Assembly (NCBI GenBank): GCA_024699855.1
Contig: JAMPIQ010000001.1
Span: 1,736,001-1,800,000, forward strand
DNA length: 64,000 bases
Direction: 5' to 3'
Source: Aphelenchoides besseyi
Taxonomy: Eukaryota > Nematoda > Chromadorea > Rhabditida > Aphelenchoididae
The notes below the pieces were generated by a model. That model searched no databases. It saw only the letters and a program-made list of their open reading frames with translations, and was not told the origin of the DNA. The translations under genes were made by a program, and so were the position numbers. Shown piece after piece: positions 9,711 to 61,687 of this stretch (positions within the stretch are counted from its first letter, which is position 1; the number at the start of each line of letters is the position of its first letter).

Positions 9711-11282
9711 TTAAACATCTATTGAATCGTCGTCATCGGCTGTCGGATTGGCCGGTGGATTGACGGGAGCAGTTGTGGTAACGACATTGGAGTTAACTGC
9801 CTTCGCGTCAGCTTCCAATTGTGTCACGAATTTCGTGACTTCCGGATTGACAACATTCAACATGAACTTGCTTTGCTGTTGTGCTTTGGGATCGGTTTGC
9901 ACATTATCCGGGTTGAAAATGTAGATGTCAGATGCGCGACGAACACGCGACAAAGCCACATACAACTGACCGTGCGCAAAGACCGGCGAGTTCAAATACA
10001 AACCGATTCGCTCCATTGTTTGGCCCTGGGCTTTGTTGATGGTCATTGCGAATGCCAATTTCAAAAAAAAATGGACACGACGAAAAGCCACCGTTTGGCG
10101 TTGATCGTAGTTGACTTTGCGATCGAAAACTCGACGAACAACGTCGATTTCTTCGCCAGTCAAACCATCGGACTCGATGCGGCGAACAGTCACGACGTCC
10201 GGTTGCAAATCGGTGACAACTGCCGGAGTGCCGTTGCAGAGTCGGTAGGAGGTGTCGATGTTCGAAATGAACATGACTTTTGCGCCGATCTTCAGCTTCA
10301 ATTGCTGTTGAGCCAAACCGTTCTCTTCGATTTGACCCAAATACTCGGTCATCGCGTCGACGGCCGAATCGTCCAACGGATCGATGGTATTCTCGTCTTT
10401 GATCGTGTTGATGGCCTCGTAGACAATCGTTTGTCCGGGCAATTTTTTCAGCAACTCTTCGTTGATCGAGTTGACGGTCACATTCAACGGCGCAACAATC
10501 GCCGAGTTGGACGTGATGTTTCCGCTTTGCAAAGGTGCCGACGGAAACACTCGATCTTGGAGTTCCTGAAGATCGTTGACCAAATTAAAGTCCGACAAAG
10601 CAAGTATTGTCGAGTAGTAGTCGTTTTGTCGCACGATCGGTTTGTTGGCAATTCCGACGTCGCGCAAAAATGAGCGAAACCGAATCTGATTCGCGTCAGT
10701 TCGGTGGTTCTGACGCAGGCACAGGAATTTGATTGTACCCTTGTCATGCTCAGCAATCAGACTTTCTTCGAAGCCGGAAGCCACGTTTCCGTTTCGAAAG
10801 ATCGGCAGAATTTGTCGAAAGTCGCCGCCGAAAACGATCAGCAATCGTAGTTTGACGTACGGACCTTGGCGAAGGTCTTGAATTACACGTTTCATGTAAT
10901 TATAGACGTTTTGATGCATTGCCGATGCTTCATCAATTAGAAGAAGTCCCCAGCGGCGAATCGCTTCGGCAGCCCGACAATGTTTGTTCATTCGTGATTC
11001 CGAGTCCGAAGCGAGGTCTGTTGGAATCATGAATCGGGAATGAACGGTTTGTCCTTGGAACAAAAGCGACGCGGCGATTCCCGTCGTTGCGCTAGCGGCA
11101 AATGGAATGCCGTGCTCATTGCATTGTCGAATCAACTGATTGTACAATGTCGTCTTGCCAGTTCCACCTTCACCGTGTAAGAAGAACATTAACGGTGGCG
11201 GAATCGGTTGGCCATTTGGAAGTTCGGACTGTTGAATGGAGTGCCAGATCAGGTCGAAGGTTTGTTGCTGATCGCAACCCAA
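9711..11282 (-). CDS. Pif1-like helicase part of the Helitron
   Basis: An open frame of 523 codons. The Walker A motif GEGGTGKTTL lies at about residues 37-46 and the Walker B motif LLLIDEAS at about 112-119. GGDFRQILPI follows (motif III of the Pif1/RecD superfamily), and near the C-terminus TINKAQGQTMERIG and LYVALSRVRR (motifs V and VI). This order is that of SF1B helicases of the Pif1 family as found in Helitrons. The first codon of the frame is TTG and is not a real start: the protein should continue from the middle Helitron segment, but a one-base frame change near 11283-11300 separates it. The last 40 or so residues are Asn/Ala/Pro-rich. The helicase part itself shows no internal stop. 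Confidence 0.9.
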   Translation of the reverse strand: MGCDQQQTFDLIWHSIQQSELPNGQPIPPPLMFFLHGEGGTGKTTLYNQLIRQCNEHGIPFAASATTGIAASLLFQGQTVHSRFMIPTDLASDSESRMNKHCRAAEAIRRWGLLLIDEASAMHQNVYNYMKRVIQDLRQGPYVKLRLLIVFGGDFRQILPIFRNGNVASGFEESLIAEHDKGTIKFLCLRQNHRTDANQIRFRSFLRDVGIANKPIVRQNDYYSTILALSDFNLVNDLQELQDRVFPSAPLQSGNITSNSAIVAPLNVTVNSINEELLKKLPGQTIVYEAINTIKDENTIDPLDDSAVDAMTEYLGQIEENGLAQQQLKLKIGAKVMFISNIDTSYRLCNGTPAVVTDLQPDVVTVRRIESDGLTGEEIDVVRRVFDRKVNYDQRQTVAFRRVHFFLKLAFAMTINKAQGQTMERIGLYLNSPVFAHGQLYVALSRVRRASDIYIFNPDNVQTDPKAQQQSKFMLNVVNPEVTKFVTQLEADAKAVNSNVVTTTAPVNPPANPTADDDDSIDV

Positions 11283-11424
11283 ATGACGTGCGGAATCTGA
11301 TTGACGTCATGATAGCGCGTTTGATCGTCGCCCTCCAAAAAATCAACAGCCATTTCGCCGTGAAATTCCGGATTGAATGCAGTGACCGTTCCATCCGGTT
11401 GTGGCAAATCGAAATCACTCAAAG

Positions 11425-24894: not shown

Positions 24895-26653
24895 ATGACG
24901 GTCCAGTACAATAAAATCGTTGCAACTGCTCATTCAACGAGTTTTATTCGTTTGTTGTTTCGATGGTACGGTTCCGTGTGGAAAGGAATTCATCTCGAAC
25001 TCTTCACATGGCTCGCTTATTACATGGTAATCAGTTGTACATATCGTTTTGTTCTACGCACCACACCCACAGGTCTCGTATTCGAGAAACTGGTCCAAAA
25101 AATGGACGGATATTTGACGCAGTTTTCTGGGTTTGTTTCGATTGCAACGGCTATTCTCGACCTTTGATTTCAGTTGGTTTACTTTCGTTTTGGGTCTTTA
25201 TGTTTCGGCTGTTGCTGCTCGTTGGTCGTGGGTCTTCTATCAACTACCATGGCCGGATAACTTTTTCTCGTTGCTTTCGGCGTTTTTCGAATCAAAAGGC
25301 GAAAGATATAAGGTCTTCGATTCTTCCTATTTAGCTGATGTTTTTAGGTTGCGGAGTTGAATCTTCGAATGACGATTTCACGTTACTGGAACGCTGTTTT
25401 TATTCTCATTCTTCGCGACATCAGTGAAAGTGCTCGAAAACGTTTTCCAACTCTTCACCATCTCGTCAGTTCATTTGATCAGTTCACTCGACTTTTGTCT
25501 TCAGGTACCATTAGTATTGACGATTGATGAAGTGGAGATCATCGAACGAATAGAGAACAGTGATGAGTTTCTCTACAAAACCTGCCTTTATTGGGTTCCA
25601 ATTGAATGGATTGCCAAGTTGCTCAAAAAAGCACGAAACCGTGGAAATCTAAGCGATTTGAATTACACAATTCTCAATGAGGAGCTATCCAAACTGCGTC
25701 AATGTTTCAACAATCTGCTATCTCAAGACTTTCTATCCGTAATGCCACTTTCGTATACGCAGATTGTTTCCTTTGCTCCGGTGGTTTATTTTGTTTTGAA
25801 TTTGTTTGGAAAACAGTTCGTTCCGGCACCTGAAGGAGAGCCATCACGAATCGATTACATTTTTCCGTTCAATGGCGTCTACGAGTTCATTATCTACTAT
25901 GGTTGGCTAAAGGTCGGTCAAGTGATGTTAAATGCCTTCGGTTTGGATCCCGACGATTACGAAATCGATTGGTTGGTTCAACGTAACTATCAGGTTGGAT
26001 ATTGAATATGAGTACAAAAAATGTTTGAGTTTAGATTGGACGTCTGATTCTGAATCGTCTCTTTGACCAAACACCGAAAATAATGGAAGTTGAAATGGGA
26101 ATCTTACCGCATACGAAAGCAAGTGCAAAAATCATGAGACATGCAAGTCCGATGGTTGGTTCTATGGCAAAAGTTCTGGAAGAACGAAGTGAAAGACGAG
26201 ATGATGTTCGTGATAACAACAAGGTAGTTAGTGCTAAATAAAAGATTAAATCCTGTCTTTTTAGTTCTCATCAATGCAATTGAGATATTTTGGAAGGACA
26301 CCCACTGCCGATCAATTACCGGCGGTTGCTCCGACTCCTAAAGAGTTGGCTGCGCTTGCAAGACGAGTGATCTAAAATCCGTTGGAATTTCATGTTTAAC
26401 TTGTTTTAGAGCGAAGTTGTAGTTGAGTTTCTTTCTCCAAGTCAAATTCCCGAGAATGATGGAGCCCCGAAAACACAACCAGAATTCACGCCTCTAACCG
26501 ATCAAAAACCGGACAACGAAGTCAAAACTCCAAAGGTATGATGAACATAATCTCAATGTTTGAATCTTTTAACAGACTCCACAACTCGCACCATCAGTCC
26601 CGTTGGTTAAAACCGATCCAACTCAAAAGGAAAGTGTCAATGATCGTGTTTAA
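24895..26653 (+). CDS. Bestrophin family chloride channel
   Basis: Start ATG at 24895: MTVQYNKIVATAHSTSF is the characteristic bestrophin N-terminus (MTV-x-Y). Exons: 24895-25130, 25174-25312, 25348 to about 25464, 25505-25993, 26035-26223, 26265-26367, 26410-26535, 26576-26653. Features: WYGSVWK, TM helices, WVFYQLPWPDNF (bestrophin YENLPWPD), ARKRFPTLHHL with the RFP motif, CLYWVPIEW, the conserved Ca-clasp-like acidic stretch FGLDPDDYEIDWLVQRN (human E-D-D-D-D-F-E-T-N), and a polar, Pro-rich tail. All joints are GT-AG with introns of 35-45 nt. The family forms pentameric Cl-/HCO3- channels gated by calcium in the plasma membrane; nematodes have many copies. No damage is seen. It converges with the SLC22-like gene, with stops 84 bp apart. 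Confidence 0.93.
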
Positions 26654-26737: not shown

Positions 26738-28619
26738 CTACCGTTGTTCATCGTCTTCGCCAATTTCACTCGACGTATCAGGAAGTTCACAACCCTTCGT
26801 TTCTTTGAGAACAAGAGTCGCCAATCCACCAACTCCGCTAAGTAGTGCGAATGTAAGAGCCGGAAGAAGAATCCAAATATTCGCCAACGTTCGAGTGAAC
26901 GGGGCGAAAATACTACCAACTCTGAAATCAAGGATAAGACGACTTCTGTGGAATGCTTATACTTGGCCATAAATACAGCCACTCCCATACAACCGTTTCG
27001 CAATGATGTCGGAAAGAGTTCAGAAGCATATACGAATAGGGAGGTGAAACAACACGATATTGCAAACTTTCCAATTAACCACAGAATCAGTGAAAATGTC
27101 GTATTATTCACGAACATGAGTCCAATAAACGCCGCCGCTTAAACTCGTGAATTAGCTTTGTATAGATCTATTATTCAAACCTGTTAAGAAATGACCACCA
27201 GAAACAAAAAGTCGACGACCAAGACAGTTGAGTAAAAACGGCGAAAACAAGTAGCTCGGAACTTCGACCAAACCTGAAATACGATTGTTCCTTGTGTTTT
27301 CGACGTCGAACTGACCAGACAAAATGTAATTCAGAAACTTGTTTCCCGCTAGTTCCGTACTGAACAGACTAAGACCGTAATAGACAAACGAATCAACGGT
27401 CCACAAATACGACAAAATAACCGTGTAGATGAGAAGAACCCGACTTTGCATCAACTCGCTTATGATCCCGCGTTTGGAAGCCTCTGGTTTGGAGTTCTTT
27501 GTTTTGTGATGATCACGAATGATTGTCGCCGCATTCAAATCTAAACGCGGACGACGAGCAAATCGATTGGCCGCATTCAACCATTGTTGCACATCTTCTT
27601 CACGTTCCTCATTCACAAGCCAATGAAAACTATCGGGAAGAACGAAAAACAAAATCGCTGCCGAAACCAAACTCGGCAAACTCGCGGCAACAAGAATCGC
27701 TCGCCAATGTGGAAAGAAATAAGCAATTGGTGCCAATAGCGTATATCCGATGACCCAAAAAAGTCCGAAGATCAACGGAGCGTACTTTCGCAATGCCATT
27801 GGACTTGATTCGTAGGCAAGAACCTGAAAGCTGGTTAGAACGGACGATAACCCCAACTGCATACCCAATTGATGACACCACAACCCGGGAACAATATCCC
27901 TTGGAATAGTCGCAAAGCCATAAGTTGCCAAACGCTTCGCGAAAATGAACCGGCAATACCGAAAACACCATAGCAAGCAAGAGCGAACAATAAAGCGGTT
28001 CGTCTTCCTCTCAAATCCGAAAACCGATTGATGATGCTGCCACCAATTGCGTTCCCGATTAAGAAGGCCATTGTGGTCATATCTCCATAACGCGCTTCTT
28101 TTCCCGTCAAATTGAACTAAAGTTTTTTGTGTGGTCGACTCGTTCAGTTTTCGGAACAAACTTCTTCGACCACTGATCCGGGTGTCGTAACACAGTTTGT
28201 CGTATTCTCACTACAAATATTTCCGACTAGCCACGCTGATGTCTTGAAACAAGAAGTTGAACAAAATTTGCTGTCCACGTACTCACCATCACGGGCATTG
28301 CAGCCACCGCCCAAATGATTGCCATCAAACTGAAGACCATCAGAATGTACGGATTGAAAGGTCCTAAATTCTCTGTTACTTTCGTATAAGATAAACATTT
28401 ACCTAACGAATTCAGAATTTGATCCGGTGTCTCGCCCATTGGTGAGGAAATTCGCTGCTCGTGACTCAAAAGCTCTTGTCGATCATCACGATCGGGATTT
28501 TCGATTACTGAACCACCGACTGTTGGGCTTTTCGCCATCATGTTCGCTTTTTTTGTTACCGCACCATAACTCGCGTGTTGTCGCAGTTCATTGCTTCCTC
28601 CCGCCGTTGCCTCATCCAT
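26738..28619 (-). CDS. SLC22-type MFS transporter (organic ion transporter)
   Basis: Minus strand, ATG at 28619, stop TAG at 26738. A polar N-terminus of about 60 residues leads to DQILNSLG and NPYILMVFSLMAIIWAVAA (TM1). After the extracellular loop comes the MFS motif FSDLRGRRTALL (28030 region), then RLFQGI, an intron at about 27839-27879, and VLAYESSPMALRKYAP followed by GLFWVIGYTLLAPIAYFFPHW. LPDSFHWLV precedes a basic central loop. In the second half are further TMs, LNCLGRR, and ASELFPTSLRNGCMG, typical of SLC22. The C-terminal TM exon ends with LPDTSSEIGEDEQR. The order matches organic cation/carnitine transporters; substrate unknown. An acceptor-like TTTCCAG lies just before the start and may mark trans-splicing. 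Confidence 0.85.
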
Positions 28620-50437: not shown

Positions 50438-50931
50438 GCTCGTCTTCTTCTCACTTCTCATAACTCAACAACATCTTTCTACCTTGTTGTTCGTTTCACG
50501 CTCTTCCCAGACTCCAAAGCCCTAAATTTCTTTGTATATCTATTTGTTGTCCTACTTTTGTTGTAGTTTCGTAAATCAATGAAATTTATCACAACTATTT
50601 TGTACAATCGTGAGCCAAAGAACGGGAAAATACGTTTGATGAAACAAAAACTTTTTCGAATTTCGTATGCGGATTATGAGCATAAAGAAAGAAACTTCAT
50701 TATATAATGAGAAGAGGTCAGAACGGAGCACGAGCATAGACCGGAACAATTATACCGGGTGAAGCGGTCAAGTTAAGTGGTTATGACACAACGAGAAAAT
50801 AAGGTTCTAATTTAAAATCGATAAATACGATCGATACTTAGTGAATGACGAGACAGTCGACCAAACCGCTGCCGACAAAATGCATAACAATCTTAGAATA
50901 TAGAAGTAAAGAGACCGACTGTACACGCACT
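50438..50931. other. Intergenic and FOXO copy 1 3' flank
   Basis: From about 50725 the sequence is similar to the 3' flank of FOXO copy 2 (GACCGGAACAATTATACCG at 50740 and at 56539; GATAAATACGATCGAT at 50820 and 56620). The duplicated block therefore extends past the stop codons, but with many differences. Confidence 0.6.
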
Positions 50932-52628
50932 TTACATTTCAAAACTGTTAGAAGAAGTTATGTATTGCTTCAATATGCCATCGACATCAAAATCGAAAGC
51001 GTTTATGCTCTCGAGATCCGATGGCAAATTGCTGTTGTTGGCAATCGAAGTTTGGCCATGAGGGTAGACGTTTGATTGCTGCATCGATGGCTGAGCGTAC
51101 TGCACGTCCTGGACCTGGATAACGTTGCGATCGCCCGTCCATTGGCCATGCGTGTTTGGTGGGTAGTTGCTGGATGTCTGCTGTTCGTAGTAGACACTGA
51201 AAATGGAGCGTAGAACTATTTTCACCGAAACAGAACACCTACCCACTGGTTTGTGGTTGAACGGGAAAATGTTGTTGGGGATAACTGTTGCCGCTGTTCT
51301 GTTGGACTGGAGCCTGCTGCGTATAACGAGGCTGTTGACTGGGCAGCAGTGGGTTCCGCAGCTGGCCGTTTCCACGAGCCACATTCAGCTCCTGATAGGG
51401 ATGCGAGTGTTGGAAGCTGTTGGCTTCTTGTTTCACGTAAGTCGGGGACACTAGAGTCGGTTGTTGTCGTTGATATCCACCGATTTGTTGTGGAGGATCC
51501 ATTGAAACAATTTTGGTGAAGTCGATATCTGTATCCAAACGAATTTGATCGGTTCGGTCAAGAAGTTCGGCGAAAATAGTTCCGGACTCTGAAGGCTGAC
51601 TCATTCCAGAGTTGCTCATAGGTTGCTGCAGTGGAGTAGACAATGAATATTTGGATTCTTCGTTGGCTGGTTCAAACACCGGGGAAATTTGTGAACCTCC
51701 AGGAGCCGAAATGTTGGATAGAGTGCGGGAACGGAATGTCGAGCAATAGTCAGAATCGTCGGCTTCATCTCGGACCTCGTAATTCTGATCGCTTTGCGGA
51801 AGAACACGAGTGGATCCGTGCATCTGCATTTCGACACGTTTTCGAGCTCCACGTCGTTTCTTCTCGAGGGCTTGCTGAAGTCAAGATAGTGATTCATCGT
51901 GTGATCTTTCCGCTCTCACCTTAGTGTTAGTGTCCATTGTTGAAGCACGTCGACGTGGATTACGTCCTGGTTTTGCGTCCGGATTAATTACCCACCATGA
52001 GGATTTTCCGGCTCCTTCATTTTGAACACGCATAAATCGACTGTGCAGGGACAAGTTGTGGCGAATCGAATTCTAAAAATGAAAGATTACAAGTTGAAAA
52101 ATACCTTTAGATTCTTTGGACAACTTGAATTGAAAACTTTAGTACCTTCCAACCAGCCGAATCTTCAGCTGATGATCGTTCATGGAAATAAGGAACGTTT
52201 TGCGTGAACCAGACGTAAATTTCGTTTAACCGAAGTCGCCCTTCAGGTGCGCTTTCAAGTGCTTTGATAATCAGCTCTGCATACGACTCTTCACCCCATG
52301 GATTCGCTTTTCTTTGGGCTTGTAAGTCGGTGTTTCGTCGTCGAGATCTTTTGGTTCGATTGGTTGAGTCCGTTGAAATGGACTGCGTATCGATATAGAA
52401 GGAATCAGCTGATGGCCCACTGCTATTTGGACTCCAGCCATTTTCAGCTCCGTTCTCAAGTACCCCAATACTCGGCAGTCGAGCAATCGAGCCGACGGGT
52501 GTAAAGACGGTGGACGGAGTCCCGATTCCCGACGAATCGTCCGCAGCTTCCGTATTCGATGGCCACGTACGGCATCGTAAACGAAACTCTGCCGGCGGCT
52601 CATCAATCAGGTCCATCGATTCGTCCAT
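50932..52628 (-). CDS. daf-16: FOXO copy 1, isoform with b-type forkhead half (daf-16b-like)
   Basis: An alternative first coding exon, 52146-52628 (161 codons, start [15 protein letters not shown]), lies between the a-type exons and the shared exons. It has its own AKT-type site RLRCRTWP and its own first half of the forkhead: [53 protein letters not shown], ending in phase 0 at a GTACTA donor. It joins the same [11 protein letters not shown] exon as the a-type. In C. elegans daf-16 the b isoform likewise has NPWGEE and SS-x-E-x-AAGWK, so the mutually exclusive pair is conserved. A CAG acceptor about 20 nt before the ATG could serve trans-splicing, and an independent promoter is likely in 52.65-53.19 kb. 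Confidence 0.92.
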
Positions 52629-54168
52629 TTGGAAGGACGAAAATCTGTTCAATGAAAGTCAGTAAACGACAACCGAAAGCAAAAACGCGGAACGAAATAC
52701 GTAACCGAATCCAAGTGGCAATGAAATCGAAAATTTTACTCATAAAAGAAATTGAGTCCAAATGTGACGCCAATGCAGCAGCCAAAGATAATTGGCGACG
52801 GGTCGTTCGAATGCGGGAAACGAGAGCTATGAACGAGTACGAGACGGGTGTCGAGAGAAAGCAAAATCGCACAGTTTTTGCCCCGACTGCAACTACGATT
52901 CCTCTTTTTGCTCATTCGACCTTTCGCCGCGTTCACTACGCACTTCCCCGTTTTCTTCTTTTATCCCGCGTTGATCCCTTTTCCCGACTGGGAGGGGTCA
53001 CAATTTGAAAACGCAGCCAACCGAGCGACTTTCTCTGTCCATTTCTCTTTCCGCAAGTGCCACAAACCGCCGCTTTTGGTCCCGATCGCAAATACGAAGC
53101 AAGCGAAATGAGGGCGACTTGCGGTCGGCCCTCAAGTCGAAAGAATTCGGTTATCCCTGCATGCCCTTAATTGTCCAAAAAAGAATCGAAAACAAACCTT
53201 CCAGCCGGCACTTGAATTCGAATCTCCTGTAAAAAATTATTTCATGAGTGATTGGTTAAATTTAATGTTACCTTTATCTCGGAAGAAAGGTACATTGGCT
53301 ACCATGTACTCGTAGACCTGTGATAAAGTCAATCGTTTTTCCGGAGAACTCAAGATTGCTTGAGTAATTAAATCAGCCTAAAGTAGCCGAGATTAAAATG
53401 ATAAACAAAGATCATTTACGTAAGACATGTTGCCCCAGGCATTTCGTCGAGTGGTCGATTTCTTTGACGAAAGAGGCGAATCACTACCGCCAATATCGCA
53501 GTAGTCGACAGCGGAAGACATACTAGAAGTTCGAGATTAGAAATGCGAATTTGACAACAAAAACCTTACTCATTGGCAAATTGACCGGGTGACGGAGTAC
53601 TTGAAGTATCCATTTCCGTTGGCTGACTCGATTGTAGAGGGGCAAGAAGTGGTGGAGGTTGAGAGGCATCGAGTTGTTCATGCAGATTCTCGTCTGAATC
53701 ATATAGTGAACCTTCTTCTACGATGCGTTCATGCATTAAAGGCGATGTCTGAGCATTGAGATCAAGATTTGGACGTCGTAAAGGCCAAGTGTTGCAACGA
53801 TCACGTGAAACTGGCTCCAAGGTATCGTCAGTTCCAGCGAACTGACCATCATTATAGACACCCGTAGCAAGTGCTTGCGGCAGACCTTTCAATTGGGAGT
53901 CTGTGGAATTACCAGAATCGTCAGAACATTGTAGACGAGTTCGACTGGACGAAATGCTTGAGGTAGTGGAGGAATCAGTTGTGTGCACTCCAAATGCGGT
54001 ATTTGAAGACGATGCGTATGCTGAATTAAAGAACAAACCACAGTTGCTCATTGCTGGAGTAAAGTTGTGAACCGTAGGGTTAGAACCTGAACTGCAGGGC
54101 AATAAACGAACACCGGAAGCCGAATTTGGAGTTTGATGTGTTTGATCGTAACCCATTAATGAGCTCAT
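50932..54168 (-). CDS. daf-16: FOXO transcription factor, copy 1, isoform with a-type forkhead half (daf-16a-like)
   Basis: Exons (minus): 53570-54168, 53420-53522, 53272-53377, a 29-nt exon 53198-53226, then shared exons 51920-52072, 51243-51874 and 50932-51196. The start ATG at 54168 ([19 protein letters not shown]) leads to the first AKT-type site [26 protein letters not shown] begins the forkhead, with [36 protein letters not shown] and [20 protein letters not shown], then [18 protein letters not shown]. Then come the second AKT site (PRRRAST), the third (FRSRTLSN), DRTDQIRLD and the C-terminal FDVDGILKQ. This is the daf-16 layout. It would be a nuclear activator kept cytosolic by insulin/AKT signalling. 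The long first exon has many Ser/Thr. No damage is seen. Confidence 0.93.
50987..51495 (-). repeat. Conversion tract 1, copy 1 side (identical to 56781-57289)
   Basis: 509 bp read base for base the same as 56781-57289 (constant offset 5794), covering most of the last exon, the 46-bp intron 51197-51242 and the 3' part of the preceding exon. Identity stops sharply on both sides. Confidence 0.9.
51693..51959 (-). repeat. Conversion tract 2, copy 1 side (identical to 57481-57747)
   Basis: 267 bp identical to 57481-57747 (offset 5788), covering the 5' part of the large exon, the intron 51875-51919 and the end of the forkhead exon. The offset change of 6 bp is explained by a two-codon length difference in the diverged stretch between the tracts. 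Confidence 0.9.
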
Positions 54169-56725
54169 AACAAAGAAGCGGGATGCCGCCAATCGATTGC
54201 TCGCAATTCACGTGTATTCCGATCGCCGGGGATGCAAAAGAAAAGTGTAAGATGTCGTAAACTTAGACACTGAAACTAATCACTTTAATGGATGATGAAA
54301 ACGATAATCACGGTGATTTAACGTAATAAAATTGAAGGCAAAAGAAAATTTCGAAAATTAGGCCAAAGTCTAAAAGCTAATTCGGTGAAAGGAACCTGCT
54401 AATACGTTCATGTAAAACCGAATGGTCACTACCATCTGAAAAAACGACTCGTCGCGACACGCGTCGAACATTCATCGACGATCGCAAAGTAAAAGTGGGC
54501 CGAGGCCGAACAGCGGGAATGTCGAAGGGCATTTCAAAAGCCAAAAAAATCAAAAGCCCACGGTCGTCTCGCTCCGCAAGTCGTAAACGTCGTGCGTGCC
54601 GTTGTATCGCGATAATCGAACTTAACCGGCAACGCATTGCGAATTCGGATTTTTGATAATTGACGGGAATTAACGCGAAAGTCGTCGCATCAACACGGAA
54701 ATGCGTGGAAACGCGGCTGCTGCCATTGATCGTAAAGTGAGCGATAGTTTGGCGGGAGAGAGAGAAACGCAGACTGATTATTTTTGCACTTTGTCGTTTT
54801 CACGCCGTTGCTTGATAAGAGAGAAGAACGGTTAGTCGAGAGGTGGAAGTGGTGTGGCGAACAATGGAGAAGGGCGCCAACAAATTCATCGAATTTACGA
54901 ATATCGTCATTGCGAGTGTGCAAAACTGTAAAGGCGAAATCACTTGATAATCATTCCAAATAGCAACTCGGCCGGAATGACGCAAATCTGTGGAGTTAAT
55001 CTCGACGATGCACCAGAATTTTGAATCGACTGGACGATTTGTGCGGATTTACGAGTCCCTAGGATTAGGAAACAACCATTAGTTGTTCACATCTCTTCGC
55101 CATTCTTTAGATGACCAACTAACTAAATGTAATGAAGGAGAGTAAGTCGCAATGAAACGGATTGTTCAAGAGCAAAATCCCACAGCCCGAAGTCGAGGGC
55201 CATCGGTTGCAAAATGGACCTCAGATTTCGTAGACAACTGGACATTTTTGAACTGATTCCGCAGACTGTTCGCTGAATTAGACACAAAGCACGAGAGGAA
55301 GTTTCGGAGTAATAAAACAGATCGTCAAACGAAAGAAAATCAACGACTTTTAAGTTTCAGTCCCATTGATTCATCAGGAGAACAGAATCATTTGATTGCC
55401 CAACTCCAATGGTTGGCATTGAAATCGAAAAAATTTTAAAATCAACCGTCATGTGCGACAAAAGCGACGTGAAATGGGACATCGGCAGACAACGTTCTCT
55501 CTCTTCGCTTCCTGACGTTCCGATACGCACTTCGTCTGCTCGAAACCCGCCGCGTACGTTTTAGTACGCACCACATTTCCTCTTAGTTTAATGCCAAAAA
55601 GTTCACCTGCCAGCGGCCCAAATAAGTTGAGAGGAAAGATCGTAATAAATTTCAAGACCCCGCGGTTTCTTGACAACCCATTTCTAATAACCGACACGGC
55701 AAACCGAACAAACGCAGTAAGTCTAATTGAGTTAGATATCAACGTCTGGATGTAAAAACAAGTCAAATCTGTGCTTTCAAATACGCTTCTAACACCAATA
55801 CCTTCACGAAAGAGAGTGGTCACTAACGTCGTAGTGGAACGAGCAAGAGCCTTGAGGTGTTAGACACGCAGTATTTCGAATTGTAATCAGGTTAATTGTC
55901 GCAAACACCTCAGTGGTTACTCTCTGCTATAAAGTCCACGCAAGCAATAGTTCATGTTGACTGCAATGAGGCCAAGAACACCGTTGTTTTAAATCAAAAC
56001 AAAGAGATTACAGTTTGCCAACTTGCTTCCAACTCTTGCGGACCCTATAAAGGAAGTTGAAGGATTGGATTATTAAACCAACTTCCAACTTTAATGCTGT
56101 CATTATCAGCAACAGAAATATAACTCCTCACCCTCGGCTATTCGTCCCCATGAGTTGTCAGTGTCAAGCGGTGTCACTAATGTACGACCGCATAATTATG
56201 TCGCAATACAGACGATCAAAAAGCACCACCTATAAATTAAGTACGACGAATTCTTTAGCCTTCCGTACTCGTGACTTTAAAACGACGTCAAATGTCATAA
56301 CCGCTGAGGAATTGACTACAAAACATCTTCGGCTTTGGTATCAAGTGATGTGCTGAGTGTTTGTATTCACCGGCCCACAATCGTTCTTTAAATTGAAAAC
56401 ATTTTTGTTTATTAACGCTATTTATATAACTCAAACAAAGAGGTCAATTCACCTACAAAGTCGCTAACAGCGCAGAGTTAAATTGAATCGAGTAATCTGG
56501 TGAGGAGTGGTCAGAAACACGAGAGAGCGCAAGCATAGACCGGAACAATTATACCGAGAAAACAGACAAATTAAGTGGCTATCACACAACAAAAATAAAC
56601 AATTTCTTATCCAAAAAAGATAAATACGATCGATGCGTAGTGAATTAGATAAGGAACCGATCGAGCAAAATGCATTACGATCTTAACGTTTAAGAGAGAA
56701 AAGAGAGACCGACTGTACACGCACT
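54169..56725. other. 2.5-kb gene-free region between the FOXO copies
   Basis: Promoter side of copy 1 and 3' flank of copy 2. A minus-strand frame at 55449-55823 (124 codons) and a TATA-like word at 55934 were seen, but nothing links them to a gene. From about 56510 to 56725 the 3' flank shows patchy similarity to 50720-50931. Confidence 0.45.
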
Positions 56726-58979
56726 TTACATTTCAAAACTATTGGATGAAGTAAAATCTTGTTTTAGGATTGCATCGACGTCAAAATCGAAAGCGTTTAT
56801 GCTCTCGAGATCCGATGGCAAATTGCTGTTGTTGGCAATCGAAGTTTGGCCATGAGGGTAGACGTTTGATTGCTGCATCGATGGCTGAGCGTACTGCACG
56901 TCCTGGACCTGGATAACGTTGCGATCGCCCGTCCATTGGCCATGCGTGTTTGGTGGGTAGTTGCTGGATGTCTGCTGTTCGTAGTAGACACTGAAAATGG
57001 AGCGTAGAACTATTTTCACCGAAACAGAACACCTACCCACTGGTTTGTGGTTGAACGGGAAAATGTTGTTGGGGATAACTGTTGCCGCTGTTCTGTTGGA
57101 CTGGAGCCTGCTGCGTATAACGAGGCTGTTGACTGGGCAGCAGTGGGTTCCGCAGCTGGCCGTTTCCACGAGCCACATTCAGCTCCTGATAGGGATGCGA
57201 GTGTTGGAAGCTGTTGGCTTCTTGTTTCACGTAAGTCGGGGACACTAGAGTCGGTTGTTGTCGTTGATATCCACCGATTTGTTGTGGAGCATCCATCGGA
57301 GCAATGTTACTAAAGTCAAAGTCGGTGTCGAGACAAATTTGATCGGTTCGATCAAGAAGTTCGGACAAAATTGTCCCTGATTCCGATTGCTGATTCATTT
57401 CCGCGTTATTTGTTTGTTGTTGAGTGGACCACGAGTATTTAAACTCTTCGCCATTTGGTTCAAAAACTGGAGAAATTTGCGAACCTCCAGGAGCCGAAAT
57501 GTTGGATAGAGTGCGGGAACGGAATGTCGAGCAATAGTCAGAATCGTCGGCTTCATCTCGGACCTCGTAATTCTGATCGCTTTGCGGAAGAACACGAGTG
57601 GATCCGTGCATCTGCATTTCGACACGTTTTCGAGCTCCACGTCGTTTCTTCTCGAGGGCTTGCTGAAGTCAAGATAGTGATTCATCGTGTGATCTTTCCG
57701 CTCTCACCTTAGTGTTAGTGTCCATTGTTGAAGCACGTCGACGTGGACTACGGCCGTGCTTTGCTTCGGGGTTAATCACCCACCACGACGATTTCCCTGC
57801 GCCTTCATTTTGAACACGCATAAATCGACTGTGCAAGGACAAGTTGTGGCGAATCGAATTCTAAAGTTTAGTTGAACAAAAGTCTCGAATATTTGTAAAC
57901 TAACCTTCCAACCTGCTGAGCTATTGCAATTCGACTTGTCGCGGAAGAACGGGATGTTCACGGTCATCCAATCGTAGATTTGCGATAACGTTAGTCGTTG
58001 GTCCGGGGAACTCAGAATTGCTTGGGTGATCATCTCAGCGTAAGACATGTTGCCCCAAGCGTTACGGCGGGTTTGCGATCGTTTTTGTGCTGGACTTTGA
58101 AAATCAGCTCCCGAATCGGGCGAATTGCTTTCCGAGTAGTTCATTGGTGATAAACTGCAAATGAAGTGATTGGGTTATGTTTTTCTGACTTAAACTTACT
58201 CATAACCGACTTCCTGATCCTGTGAATCCATGCGCTGAAGATTGGCTCCGTTTGATGCATAGTTCGCGTATTGGTCATGAAAAACGCTAGTTTGACTTCC
58301 ATTTTCATTGAAATATCTAAAATAGTTGACTGATAAATATGCCAAAATAATCTGCAAAACTTACGGTTCTTCTTCTGGAATGCGATCGTGCATTCGAGGC
58401 GAAGCAGTGGAGTGCGGTTCTGGACGTCGCATCGGCCATGTGTTGCAACGATCGCGTGGCTGAGGTTCGAAATCGTCTTCATTACCGAATCCCATCAATG
58501 GCGGACTGTTTATGCATTCAGGAACAATCGCATTCACACCATCAGACGCAATTCCCGAATCATCACATTGCATGCGAGTTCGATTGGACGGATTGTTCGG
58601 TGAAGACACGTACCCTGAACGAATCGAGCGGCCTTAGAATATCAGTGAGTTCGAGTACCTGAGTAGAGTTGTGAACCTTCAACATAGTTGACGGGTTGTT
58701 GCATGTTGTTTGATGGAGGAATCGAATTGATAGGCTCCATGAAATCGGCCGGCAAGATGGTTGCCGATTTCGAATGAAGCGGCTCGTGTACCGCACTCAT
58801 CAATGGATCATCAGAATGAAGAAGAACTTCGGTTTTTGGCGAGGGCGAAATGGTTGCGGATTCGGTTGTCAATCGGGTGGAATTCAAGAGCAGCAACTTT
58901 CGCTTCTCGTCTCTGTGCTTTCCTTCAATCTTAACTTCAAGTTTCGAAGCTGTCGAAAAGCAACGTTTTTGGGGTTTAA
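56726..58979 (-). CDS. daf-16: FOXO transcription factor, copy 2, a-type forkhead only
   Basis: Exons (minus): 58658-58979, 58365-58632, about 58200-58316, 57905-58155, 57708-57860, 57037-57662 and 56726-56990. The AKT-type site RDRCNTWP lies in the 58365 exon. The forkhead is [54 protein letters not shown], then [14 protein letters not shown], so it derives from an a-type exon. [14 protein letters not shown] carries small changes relative to copy 1. Sites PRRRAST and FRSRTLSN and the C-terminal FDVDAILKQ are present. The first visible exon is open from an acceptor at 58980 and has no obvious ATG before residue 40, so the start exon may lie further up. No b-type exon is seen. Large parts are identical to copy 1 (see repeats). 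Likely functional. Confidence 0.92.
56781..57289 (-). repeat. Conversion tract 1, copy 2 side
   Basis: Partner of 50987-51495. Perfect identity including the intron. Flanking bases differ at once (for example TTAGGATTGCATCGACG before it against TTCAATATGCCATCGACA). Confidence 0.9.
57481..57747 (-). repeat. Conversion tract 2, copy 2 side
   Basis: Partner of 51693-51959. Perfect identity including the intron. Between the two tracts (57290-57480) the copies differ at roughly every third to fourth base. Confidence 0.9.
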
Positions 58980-61687
58980 ACTGAAAAAAAGAATTCGAAG
59001 TTCAATTTGTCTTCAAACGTTCACGTGGATAACACAAATTCTCGACGTTTCATTGCAGACCGCCCTACACGCATCGACGTGCATTCGACTTCGAAAATGA
59101 GCGCAATTCCCGAAATTTCCACGCTCCGTGCTACGCCCGTGCAGACGCGAGAAAAAAGCCACGAAGCAAAAGTACGAGAATCACGAGCAAAATTGGAAAA
59201 AAGCAGCACGTCTGCGAGTTGTTTTCGATTCGAAAAAAGAGAACGAACGTTCAATGACCCTTCTGGTTGCTCATTGGCGGACGAAAAATGTTGCTCAGCG
59301 GCCGTCTGGGAGGCACGACGATAAAAACAGAGAACACGGTAAACAAAATTGTTCGCTCATGACAAAACGAATCTTTGCGTTTTTGTGTTTCATTTCGTTT
59401 GTCTTGAATCATCGATATCCCCTGTAGTGTGCAATCACTATTTTTGTTCTCTCCAAAGCCAATGCTACGGTTATTTCCAACTACTGTTTCAACAGACGAC
59501 CATTCGTCTGAAGAAGAAAACGATAATAAGCAGACGACCTTCAGCGGCTTAATACAAAGATCACCACAAAACATAAGACGATTGTTTGTTGCATAGCAAG
59601 TGGACCTTTTTATTCGGCATTCACCTCAAAGTTTCGCAGCCTTGAAGTTTAAAACTCGGACATCCAGTACTTAGTCTTCGACAATTTTACGCGCCAACTG
59701 AACGAAATGCTGCAACAACAACAGTGCGTCTGCGGCATCACATTGTGCAAAATGGGACGGAAAATGTCGTTTCGATGGGGCGGTGGGGAGGTCCCCTTCA
59801 AAGTCACGATGTTTTTTTCGTCGGAGCAAATATGATCTCTGAAACTTTAGTTACGGCGGACGTGGAGAATCGGAATTCTTCGCTCTCTCGCACTTTGGTT
59901 TTCAATTGCTCGTCTGTTTCTAATCTCCCTTTTTTTAGCGAGCCCTCTGCTCTCTCCCTGAGGCCGGTTTGTGGCGGGTGCGTGCGTTTACAGGGCGGAG
60001 TTCGTGCGTTGAAACATCATAAAAAACCTCGAAACCGTCTAATTTGCTTGGCTCGGAACTCTCAGGCCAAACATCAACGCTGCTGTTGCAATTAAGAGAG
60101 AGAGGATATAAAGTACGAGCTGTTTATGCCGCCAAATTCCGAGCCAAAAACCGCTTATTGACCGTTGGACTCAGCGGTTTCTAATCCATACGTAAAGTTC
60201 TTTGTCCGTTATGATCCTATTCCCACGTCTTAATATCACGAGTTCGTTTTTGAGCGTGCATATCAAACCATTTGCACGTGTTGTTCAAAGGACTTTGAAA
60301 GGGAAAACACCATATCGACGTGTTCCTACACATAATTGTCTGGCTCTTGTTGATTCTAAAGGCTGTTGTGTGAGTCTGCCGACCGTTTTTTCTTTTGAAA
60401 CTTGCGGAGATGGTGGCCGTAAGCCTTTCGGAATAAACTTCGCAGCAGAAACACCAATTGCTCTCTTGGTCCTTCGTTTTCCGGACGTGGCGAAGAGGAA
60501 CGTTGAGTGAAAAACACCCGCCTAACGTTTCCAATGGGGTCATGCAATGAAGTCGTAAACAACAAAAGTGCACATCACAAAATGAACGAGCAGACGAACG
60601 ACAGAAAACTCGAGAGTCAACCGGGAAAGAAATCGAACGACAGCCAAAAACGGAAACTACACAAACGAGCACTCAAGACCAAAGATCCACACTGATGTGA
60701 GAGTGTGCGTAGTCGTAAACATTTTCAAAAAAATGTCATTAAAAGATCCATCTTTTTCTCTCCGAAACGGCCGAACGTCTCACAGTCAATCTATTCGACG
60801 TCCTCTTGAACGTCCGTTCGCGTAAACAAAATGAAGAAAATTTTCGTGCTTTCGGTCACGAACCTGACAGTTGGACGTCTTTGCAACGTTTATCGGCACT
60901 CACTAGTGAAACGTTTTCACGAAAATTGGCAGTCTGCTTAAACGAATCGACTTTTTGTTCTTTGCGAATAAGCCATCTGTTTTGATGTTATTAAAGCAGT
61001 TGATCGGCAATTTCACAACCGTTCGATGTCTGAAAATGGAACGCTATCAAACCGCCAATTGATCTTTGAACATCGCAGAAGACAAACGACAGTCACTTTT
61101 TTAAAAAACGTTTTTGTCGACAGATAACGAAATCACAAGTCGAGTGTGCAACCGCGTCTGATTGTCAGCTGTTTTCACGTGCTTCTCACCAATCGTCCTG
61201 AAGTCATAAACGAGATTCCAGATGTTTGAACGAAACCGCGCAATGACTGTCGGTGTCATTAGTGCTTCATCTATTCAAGTTGTCGCGAAAGTTTTCAACT
61301 TCGCAAAAGATAAAGAGTACAAAGTTCGACTCCAAAATTGCATAGATCACCGAAGCAAATTTATCGTTTGCTGTAGTTTTTGAAATGCAGTTAATGGATT
61401 GTAAACAACTCAAATTTTGCAATGGAATCGACGGTCTTATCACAACCACTTGAACAATCACAGGTCCATGTAAACTTCGAATGGTGCATCTAAAACGTAG
61501 ATTGGACTTCAGAAGTAATGTTCCCGAAGCGTTCGTTTGAATAGAAACAAGTTAACTGAAGAAATTAGAATAAACAAAATTTGTGCAAAAACTGAAATCG
61601 GATGGGTTTTCTCTTCCGAATCGTCAGTTTGATTCGAATCGCTTTTGCGAACGGCTAATTTTCTCAAAGTCGATCTTCATCGAAGCT
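58980..61687. other. 2.7-kb gene-free region upstream of FOXO copy 2 and the kinase
   Basis: Divergent upstream regions of FOXO copy 2 (minus) and the CK1-like kinase (plus). Several frames of 60-150 codons exist on both strands (for example 60217-60672 minus) but none has splice support or a motif. TCG/CGA-rich words cluster at 59.0-59.4 kb. A GGATATAAAG word lies at 60104. Confidence 0.45.

What the first reader, a model, noticed from the sequence alone, without database searches (positions are those of the whole stretch)
50932..58979. Tandem duplication of FOXO (daf-16-like) genes
Two complete FOXO genes lie head to tail on the minus strand about 5.8 kb apart. Nematodes are known for a single daf-16, so a recent in-genome duplicate of the main insulin-pathway output would be notable. 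Both copies keep the forkhead recognition helix and three AKT-type sites, so both look functional.
Basis: partly seen in the sequence, partly recalled or inferred. Interest (0 to 1): 0.85.

Follow-up and report, generated by a model that had tools for sequence, protein, structure and literature searches.

The report
Old FOXO gene pair, recently re-copied
This plant-parasitic roundworm carries two neighbouring copies of the insulin-pathway regulator FOXO (daf-16); the pair looks old, not new, but stretches of the two genes have been copied over one another, leaving one of them a hybrid.

Summary
The window (Aphelenchoides besseyi or a very close isolate) holds two intact FOXO/daf-16 genes head to tail on the minus strand. 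Gene B (56726-58980) has only the RRNAWGN type. The 5' halves and a 64-codon patch inside the 3' half are saturated at silent sites (pS about 0.7), yet two tracts beside the patch, 267 and 509 bp with introns, are letter-for-letter identical: a gene-conversion mosaic. A. fujianensis, A. bicaudatus and Bursaphelenchus also have two FOXO genes, apparently linked, so the pair is old. In A. besseyi the tail of gene A is B-type: it replaced the usual DAF-16 tail after the split from A. fujianensis (keeping it with the usual tails: p-AU 2e-51), with the join just behind the forkhead, at AKT site 2. A later conversion postdates the split from isolate M3Y94. The process is known; I found no report of it swapping a FOXO tail, in the search listings and passages I saw.

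The parts
50932..54168 (-). Gene A, FOXO/daf-16 with two alternative 5' modules
   Evidence: exon models; A. besseyi proteins P0001/P0002
53198..54168 (-). Gene A distal module: RRNAWGN-type forkhead first half; exons 54168-53570, 53522-53420, 53377-53272, 53226-53198
52146..52628 (-). Gene A proximal module: single NPWG-type exon (the type of C. elegans P0186)
   Evidence: best solved-structure match 2mbf; N-terminus 60% over 108 aa to A. fujianensis P0100
50932..52072 (-). Gene A shared 3' exons 52072-51920, 51874-51243, 51196-50932
56726..58980 (-). Gene B, FOXO with an RRNAWGN module only; exons 58980-58659, 58614-58365, 58316-58200, 58154-57905, 57860-57708, 57662-57037, 56990-56726
   Evidence: contained in P0004
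59036..59053 (-). Possible start exon of gene B as implied by the public model P0004 (intron GTGTTA...TTTTTCAG)
   Evidence: prediction only, no RNA evidence
51693..51959 (-). Conversion tract T1 in gene A (267 bp, identical to 57481-57747, includes an intron)
57481..57747 (-). Conversion tract T1 in gene B
51496..51692 (-). Diverged patch in gene A between the tracts (45/64 aa identical to B, pS 0.70)
57290..57480 (-). Diverged patch in gene B
50987..51495 (-). Conversion tract T2 in gene A (509 bp, identical to 56781-57289, includes an intron)
56781..57289 (-). Conversion tract T2 in gene B
51938..51940 (-). AKT-type site 2 codon (RRRAST) of gene A, beside the join of forkhead and B-type tail (RASTMD begins at 51949)
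50708..50931 (-). Gene A 3' flank homologous to the 3' flank of B (75% over 236 columns); similarity ends here
56501..56725 (-). Gene B 3' flank, the counterpart

Best explanation
An old tandem pair of FOXO/daf-16 genes evolves partly in concert. Shown by comparison: gene A has a forkhead that is not B-type and an NPWG module orthologous to that of A. fujianensis P0100, but a B-type 3' half, because the B-type 3' half replaced its own after the split from A. fujianensis. Shown: two tracts were made identical again much later, around a patch that stayed diverged. Inferred: the mechanism is interlocus gene conversion between neighbours in the same orientation about 5.8 kb apart, donor B in the old event, donor unknown in the recent ones. 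Inferred: three FOXO proteins (A-RRNAWGN, A-NPWG, B) thus have separate promoters, N-termini and DNA-binding first halves but nearly the same AKT-controlled, transactivating tail, as C. elegans gets from alternative promoters on shared 3' exons of one gene.
For: Identical runs of 509 and 267 bp incl. introns; neither reached in 10000 permutations. dS 0 in T1 and 0.01 in T2 against pS 0.70 in the patch and 0.70/0.74 in the 5' half. C-half tree: own A, own B and M3Y94 A join Afuj_P0005, Abic_P0035 and jgi_P0006 (99/99); holding own A with the A-type tails costs 130.8 lnL, p-AU 1.9e-51. 5' tree: own B with the same three relatives (99/99), own A outside; holding own A and B together p-AU 4.7e-4. 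Join: before RASTMD own A is 41/41 to Afuj_P0100 and 38/41 to own B; in the next segment (T1) 32/67 and 70/70. NPWG N-terminus of A is 60% to P0100; the other relatives listed have 33% or less. M3Y94 gene A: T2 137/156 with 5 gaps to own A, while own A and B are 155/156.
Against: The 5' tree does not resolve which relative is the orthologue of gene A's RRNAWGN module (8 of 13 inner branches open). The 41 forkhead residues before the join are the same in Bursaphelenchus P0013 and P0014, so they show a non-B, probably ancestral state, not orthology; orthology of A with P0100 rests on the NPWG module. The old replacement could be unequal crossing-over plus loss. M3Y94's gene B was not listed on its own (searches listed 120 of 2101 and 120 of 1630 proteins, one search listed 74; the P0004 cluster has 3 members and may hide it), so renewed conversion there is untested. 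Relatives are seen as predicted proteins, several fused or missing an exon, without DNA. No transcript data.
Confidence: 0.88

Rival explanations
1. Recent tandem duplication of one daf-16, with accelerated change of the 5' halves and of the patch.
For: 3' halves with identical introns; the 3' exon matches at 2 places only in the assembly.
Against: Saturated silent change (pS about 0.7) beside tracts at zero cannot come from one duplication date; relatives carry two diverged genes.
Confidence: 0.02
2. The old tail replacement was unequal crossing-over in the forkhead second-half exon giving B / hybrid / A, followed by loss of the intact A; only the later tracts are gene conversion.
For: Same orientation and near spacing allow it; the replaced stretch runs to the 3' end and the similarity goes 224 bp beyond the stop.
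Against: Similarity of the two 3' flanks stops there, whereas crossing-over would at first copy the whole B-A spacer; that trace may have decayed. No remnant of a usual DAF-16 tail seen in the window.
Confidence: 0.15
3. Assembly or polishing artefact: one copy's reads placed on both.
For: Identity is total over 776 bp in two tracts.
Confidence: 0.03
4. Separate duplications in Aphelenchoides and in Bursaphelenchus, so the pair is only genus-old in Aphelenchoides.
For: The 5' tree does not resolve it; branches are long.
Against: C-half tree joins Bxyl_P0024/Boki_P0052 to the B-type tails (97/94); one Aphelenchoides clade p-AU 0.0086.
Confidence: 0.25

Closest known systems
C. elegans daf-16 isoforms (alternative promoters, different N-terminal regions; PMC6668909, passages read)
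   Same: Two alternative forkhead first halves (P0036/P0046 RRNAWGN type, P0186 NPWG type) joined to the same 3' half; gene A has the same layout
   Different: Here a second gene carries a further RRNAWGN module, and its 3' half is a separate copy kept alike by conversion instead of a shared exon
Gene conversion in Caenorhabditis paralogues (PMC3966223; search listing and start of abstract only)
   Same: Interlocus conversion homogenising nematode paralogues
   Different: Here the target is FOXO and the result is a domain swap at the end of the forkhead
GOT1 paralogues in Tigriopus californicus (PMC3728101; search listing and start of abstract only)
   Same: Islands of divergence that persist despite conversion, new combinations of paralogous sequence
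   Different: Other protein family and animal; whether the patch here is kept by selection is untested
Vertebrate FOXO family (PMC7140813, passages read)
   Same: Several FOXO genes from duplication with partly overlapping function
   Different: Vertebrate FOXOs come from other duplications; no conversion mosaic is described in the passages I read

Membership tests
FOXO / DAF-16 | Forkhead domain of the FOXO class | tested here: met
   Pfam PF00250 over cut-off in 2 of 2 proteins scanned; best solved-structure matches FOXO1 4lg0 (forkhead piece of B, 178 bits) and 2mbf (first 232 aa of A NPWG, 174 bits)
FOXO / DAF-16 | Three AKT-type RxRxxS/T sites | tested here: met
   3 of 3 models; phosphorylation itself not testable
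FOXO / DAF-16 | PF16676 (FOXO transactivation motif; name recalled): checked, but not taken as defining in nematodes | tested here: not met
   Not reported at E 0.001 in 2 of 2 proteins scanned. The precomputed domains list it for some nematodes (Trichinella, Trichuris, B. xylophilus P0024 and P0053) but not for C. elegans P0036, P0046, P0186, which are FOXO beyond doubt
nematode daf-16 locus | Two alternative forkhead first halves on shared 3' exons | tested here: met
   Gene A. Gene B has only the RRNAWGN type: its intron before the second half is 44 bp
interlocus gene conversion | Tracts of identity, introns included, bounded on both sides by old divergence | tested here: met
interlocus gene conversion | Conflict between trees of different segments | tested here: met
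interlocus gene conversion | Non-reciprocal transfer shown by the flanks in a sister lineage | tested here: inconclusive
   Old event B to A from the tree; the recent tracts need M3Y94 gene B, not listed on its own

The most novel reading that the evidence does not exclude
Conversion works here as a lasting substitute for isoform sharing: selection keeps the AKT-controlled tail of two FOXO genes alike by repeated conversion while it protects the 64-codon patch, so that three FOXO proteins answer to one insulin signal through one kind of tail but differ in promoter and DNA-binding half.
Probability: 0.25. Interest if true: 0.72.

Novelty: new variant of a known kind. Interest (0 to 1): 0.52.

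Why it matters
Reviews describe FOXO as a single gene in C. elegans (PMC7140813, PMC10611805, passages read). Aphelenchoides and Bursaphelenchus, which include crop and pine parasites, appear to have two, so knock-down or expression work on "daf-16" in these worms may hit one gene, the other or both; in A. besseyi a probe in T1 or T2 cannot tell them apart. The pair is also a natural swap of a FOXO tail onto another FOXO's DNA-binding domain, a direct handle on which part sets target choice and insulin response. And it warns that 3'-half identity can make an old duplicate look new.

Tried and rejected
Searched for a remnant of the usual DAF-16 tail: the A. fujianensis P0100 tail against the own genome gave nothing at E 0.001, and it did not report even the homologous tails of A and B, so the blank is weak. 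tblastn of 10 tails against the window found, above noise, only the known exons (stray hits elsewhere have E 0.37 or more).

Looked for an NPWG module in gene B: none between its forkhead halves. NPWG queries gave one weak 20-residue hit upstream of B, 60454-60513 minus (E 0.026 to 0.33 for 3 queries); read in three frames it did not look like a forkhead to me, and I take it as chance. A. bicaudatus P0035 seems to have an NPWG module in its B-type gene, in a model that also holds the RRNAWGN module.

Looked for a third FOXO: a forkhead on C1 at 7.60 Mb is 52% alike, but its frame lacks the GDSNS-type insert before the recognition helix, which PMC10611805 (passages) gives as the FOXO insertion; its best solved-structure matches mix FOXO3 with FOXG1 and FOXA. 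I take it as another forkhead. Of the other matches none was classified one by one.

Expected the RRNAWGN modules of gene A and its relatives to group; they did not (BLAST one search puts unnamed P0008, P0016, P0009 first after A. besseyi).

GC3 as a mark of biased conversion: T2 0.55, T1 0.44, patch 0.37-0.39, 5' part 0.37-0.47; only T2 stands out, so not used.

A third short tract at the recognition helix (1 difference in 59 bases) is too short and too constrained to claim.

Exact identity of the assembly: P0002 lies on a contig of 18,143,627 bp, the window's C1 has 18,141,642, so close but not shown to be the same record.

Full report
What is there. The minus strand holds two FOXO genes. 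I name modules by sequence because isoform letters differ between papers and databases: RRNAWGN type (C. elegans P0036, P0046) and NPWG type (C. elegans P0186, listed as isoform a). Gene A has a distal RRNAWGN module in four exons, a proximal single NPWG exon and three shared 3' exons; the 1125-bp intron of the RRNAWGN isoform contains the NPWG exon. Gene B has an RRNAWGN module and its own 3' exons. All three models are open and all their splice sites are GT-AG; all three carry the recognition helix and three AKT-type sites. The own genome (47,386,574 bases, 31 contigs) has 23 listed matches to the Pfam forkhead, of which 5 lie at these two genes; the 211-aa 3' exon matches at exactly 2 places; of 14 matches to gene A's forkhead 5 lie at these genes and the other 9 are at 38-58% identity. 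No match other than the one at 7.60 Mb was looked at singly.

Organism. The best proteins are Aphelenchoides besseyi: P0002 99%, P0001 93% (over 64% of the query), P0003 93%, P0004 74%. Identity to a named assembly was not shown.

Mosaic. Codon comparison of A and B by segment: N-terminus 64/205 aa, pS 0.70; forkhead first half 43/57 aa, pS 0.74; second half up to the join 38/41 aa, pS 0.41; T1 70/70 aa, no silent change; patch 45/64 aa, pS 0.70; T2 155/156 aa, one silent change; tail 13/16 aa. The genomic runs are 267 and 509 bp without a mismatch, introns included; neither was reached in 10000 permutations. The 3' flanks are 75% alike over 236 columns and similarity then stops; upstream regions show no significant similarity (best E 0.22).

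Relatives. Three protein searches listed 120 of 2101, 120 of 1630 and 74 of 74 proteins, 212 in all. P0005 and P0035 have B-type tails, P0100 and P0055 the usual DAF-16 tail. Ditylenchus destructor also has two entries, on contigs of different length and much alike by eye; I did not pursue them.

Trees. From 29 sequences (27 proteins and the two window genes) the C-half tree used 17: 8 had no match to my motif and 4 were dropped as redundant or truncated (Abes98_A, Abes_B, Bxyl_P0053, jgi_P0026). The 5' tree used 16 of the 25 with an RRNAWGN module, chosen by hand. In the C half own A and own B are together inside the B-type set; in the 5' half own B stays with that set (99/99) and own A does not. 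AU tests: own A with the usual tails rejected (1.9e-51); own A with own B in the 5' half rejected (4.7e-4); all Aphelenchoides tails as one clade rejected (0.0086). These sets were named after a first tree had been seen, so the p-values are optimistic; the first is beyond that concern. The 5' tree is otherwise poorly resolved, 4 of 13 inner branches starred, with long branches flagged.

Join and timing. Own A equals Afuj_P0100 at 41/41 up to the join and only 32/67 in the next segment, where it equals own B 70/70. The same 41 residues are in Bursaphelenchus P0013 and P0014, so this marks the non-B, probably ancestral state. The join lies behind the Pfam Forkhead match (114-195 in the NPWG isoform; RASTMD begins at residue 203), so a whole DNA-binding domain was joined to a whole tail. 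In the patch A and B are nearer to each other (45/64) than to A. fujianensis B (23/48 and 28/47), so the replacement followed that split. M3Y94 gene A already has it. Between own A and M3Y94 A the segments (second half, T1, patch, T2, tail) give 41/41, 69/70, 60/66, 137/156 with 5 gaps, and 16/16; T2 is the most changed while own A and B are the same there, so the last T2 event came after those lineages parted.

Mechanism. Conversion between same-strand neighbours is established knowledge; tracts bounded on both sides inside the gene show it for the recent events. The old event may have been unequal exchange. That the shared tail gives both genes the same insulin response is inference.

Literature. 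Ten searches showed me no report of two daf-16 genes in these genera nor of FOXO gene conversion. I saw listings, starts of abstracts and passages only, some searches matched far more papers than were listed, and the library lacks most subscription papers. PMC4924289 (passages) includes B. [quoted passage not shown] PMC8555053 (passages) calls daf-16 sequences conserved among Clade 10 parasites, B. xylophilus among them. PMC12844259 (passages) lists a B. xylophilus transcript "daf-16-1 protein 2", the name that P0100 also bears. PMC7266049 (passages, A. fragariae) speaks in its abstract of forkhead factors similar to daf-16, a number of which changed under drying. PMC6668909 (passages) gives the alternative promoters of daf-16.

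Noticed in passing
window 50708-50931 and 56501-56725: The 3' flanks of the two genes are 75% alike although silent sites nearby are saturated; runs of 36 bp (across the stop) and 25 bp are identical. Either a constrained 3' UTR or an intermediate conversion.
   Followed up: partly
window 9714-11306, minus: Open frame of 531 codons with PIF1-like helicase domains (PF05970, PF21530), possibly of a mobile element.
   Followed up: no
window 25373-26002 plus; 27155-28207 minus: Open frames matching a bestrophin-type channel (PF01062) and a sugar transporter (PF00083).
   Followed up: no
P0001, P0013, P0014, P0035: Public gene models join both alternative forkhead halves into one protein, so these annotated FOXO proteins are probably wrong.
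   Followed up: partly
P0014/P0030 and P0024/P0053: B. xylophilus seems to have two FOXO genes with different tails, each with both module types; not discussed in the passages I saw.
   Followed up: partly
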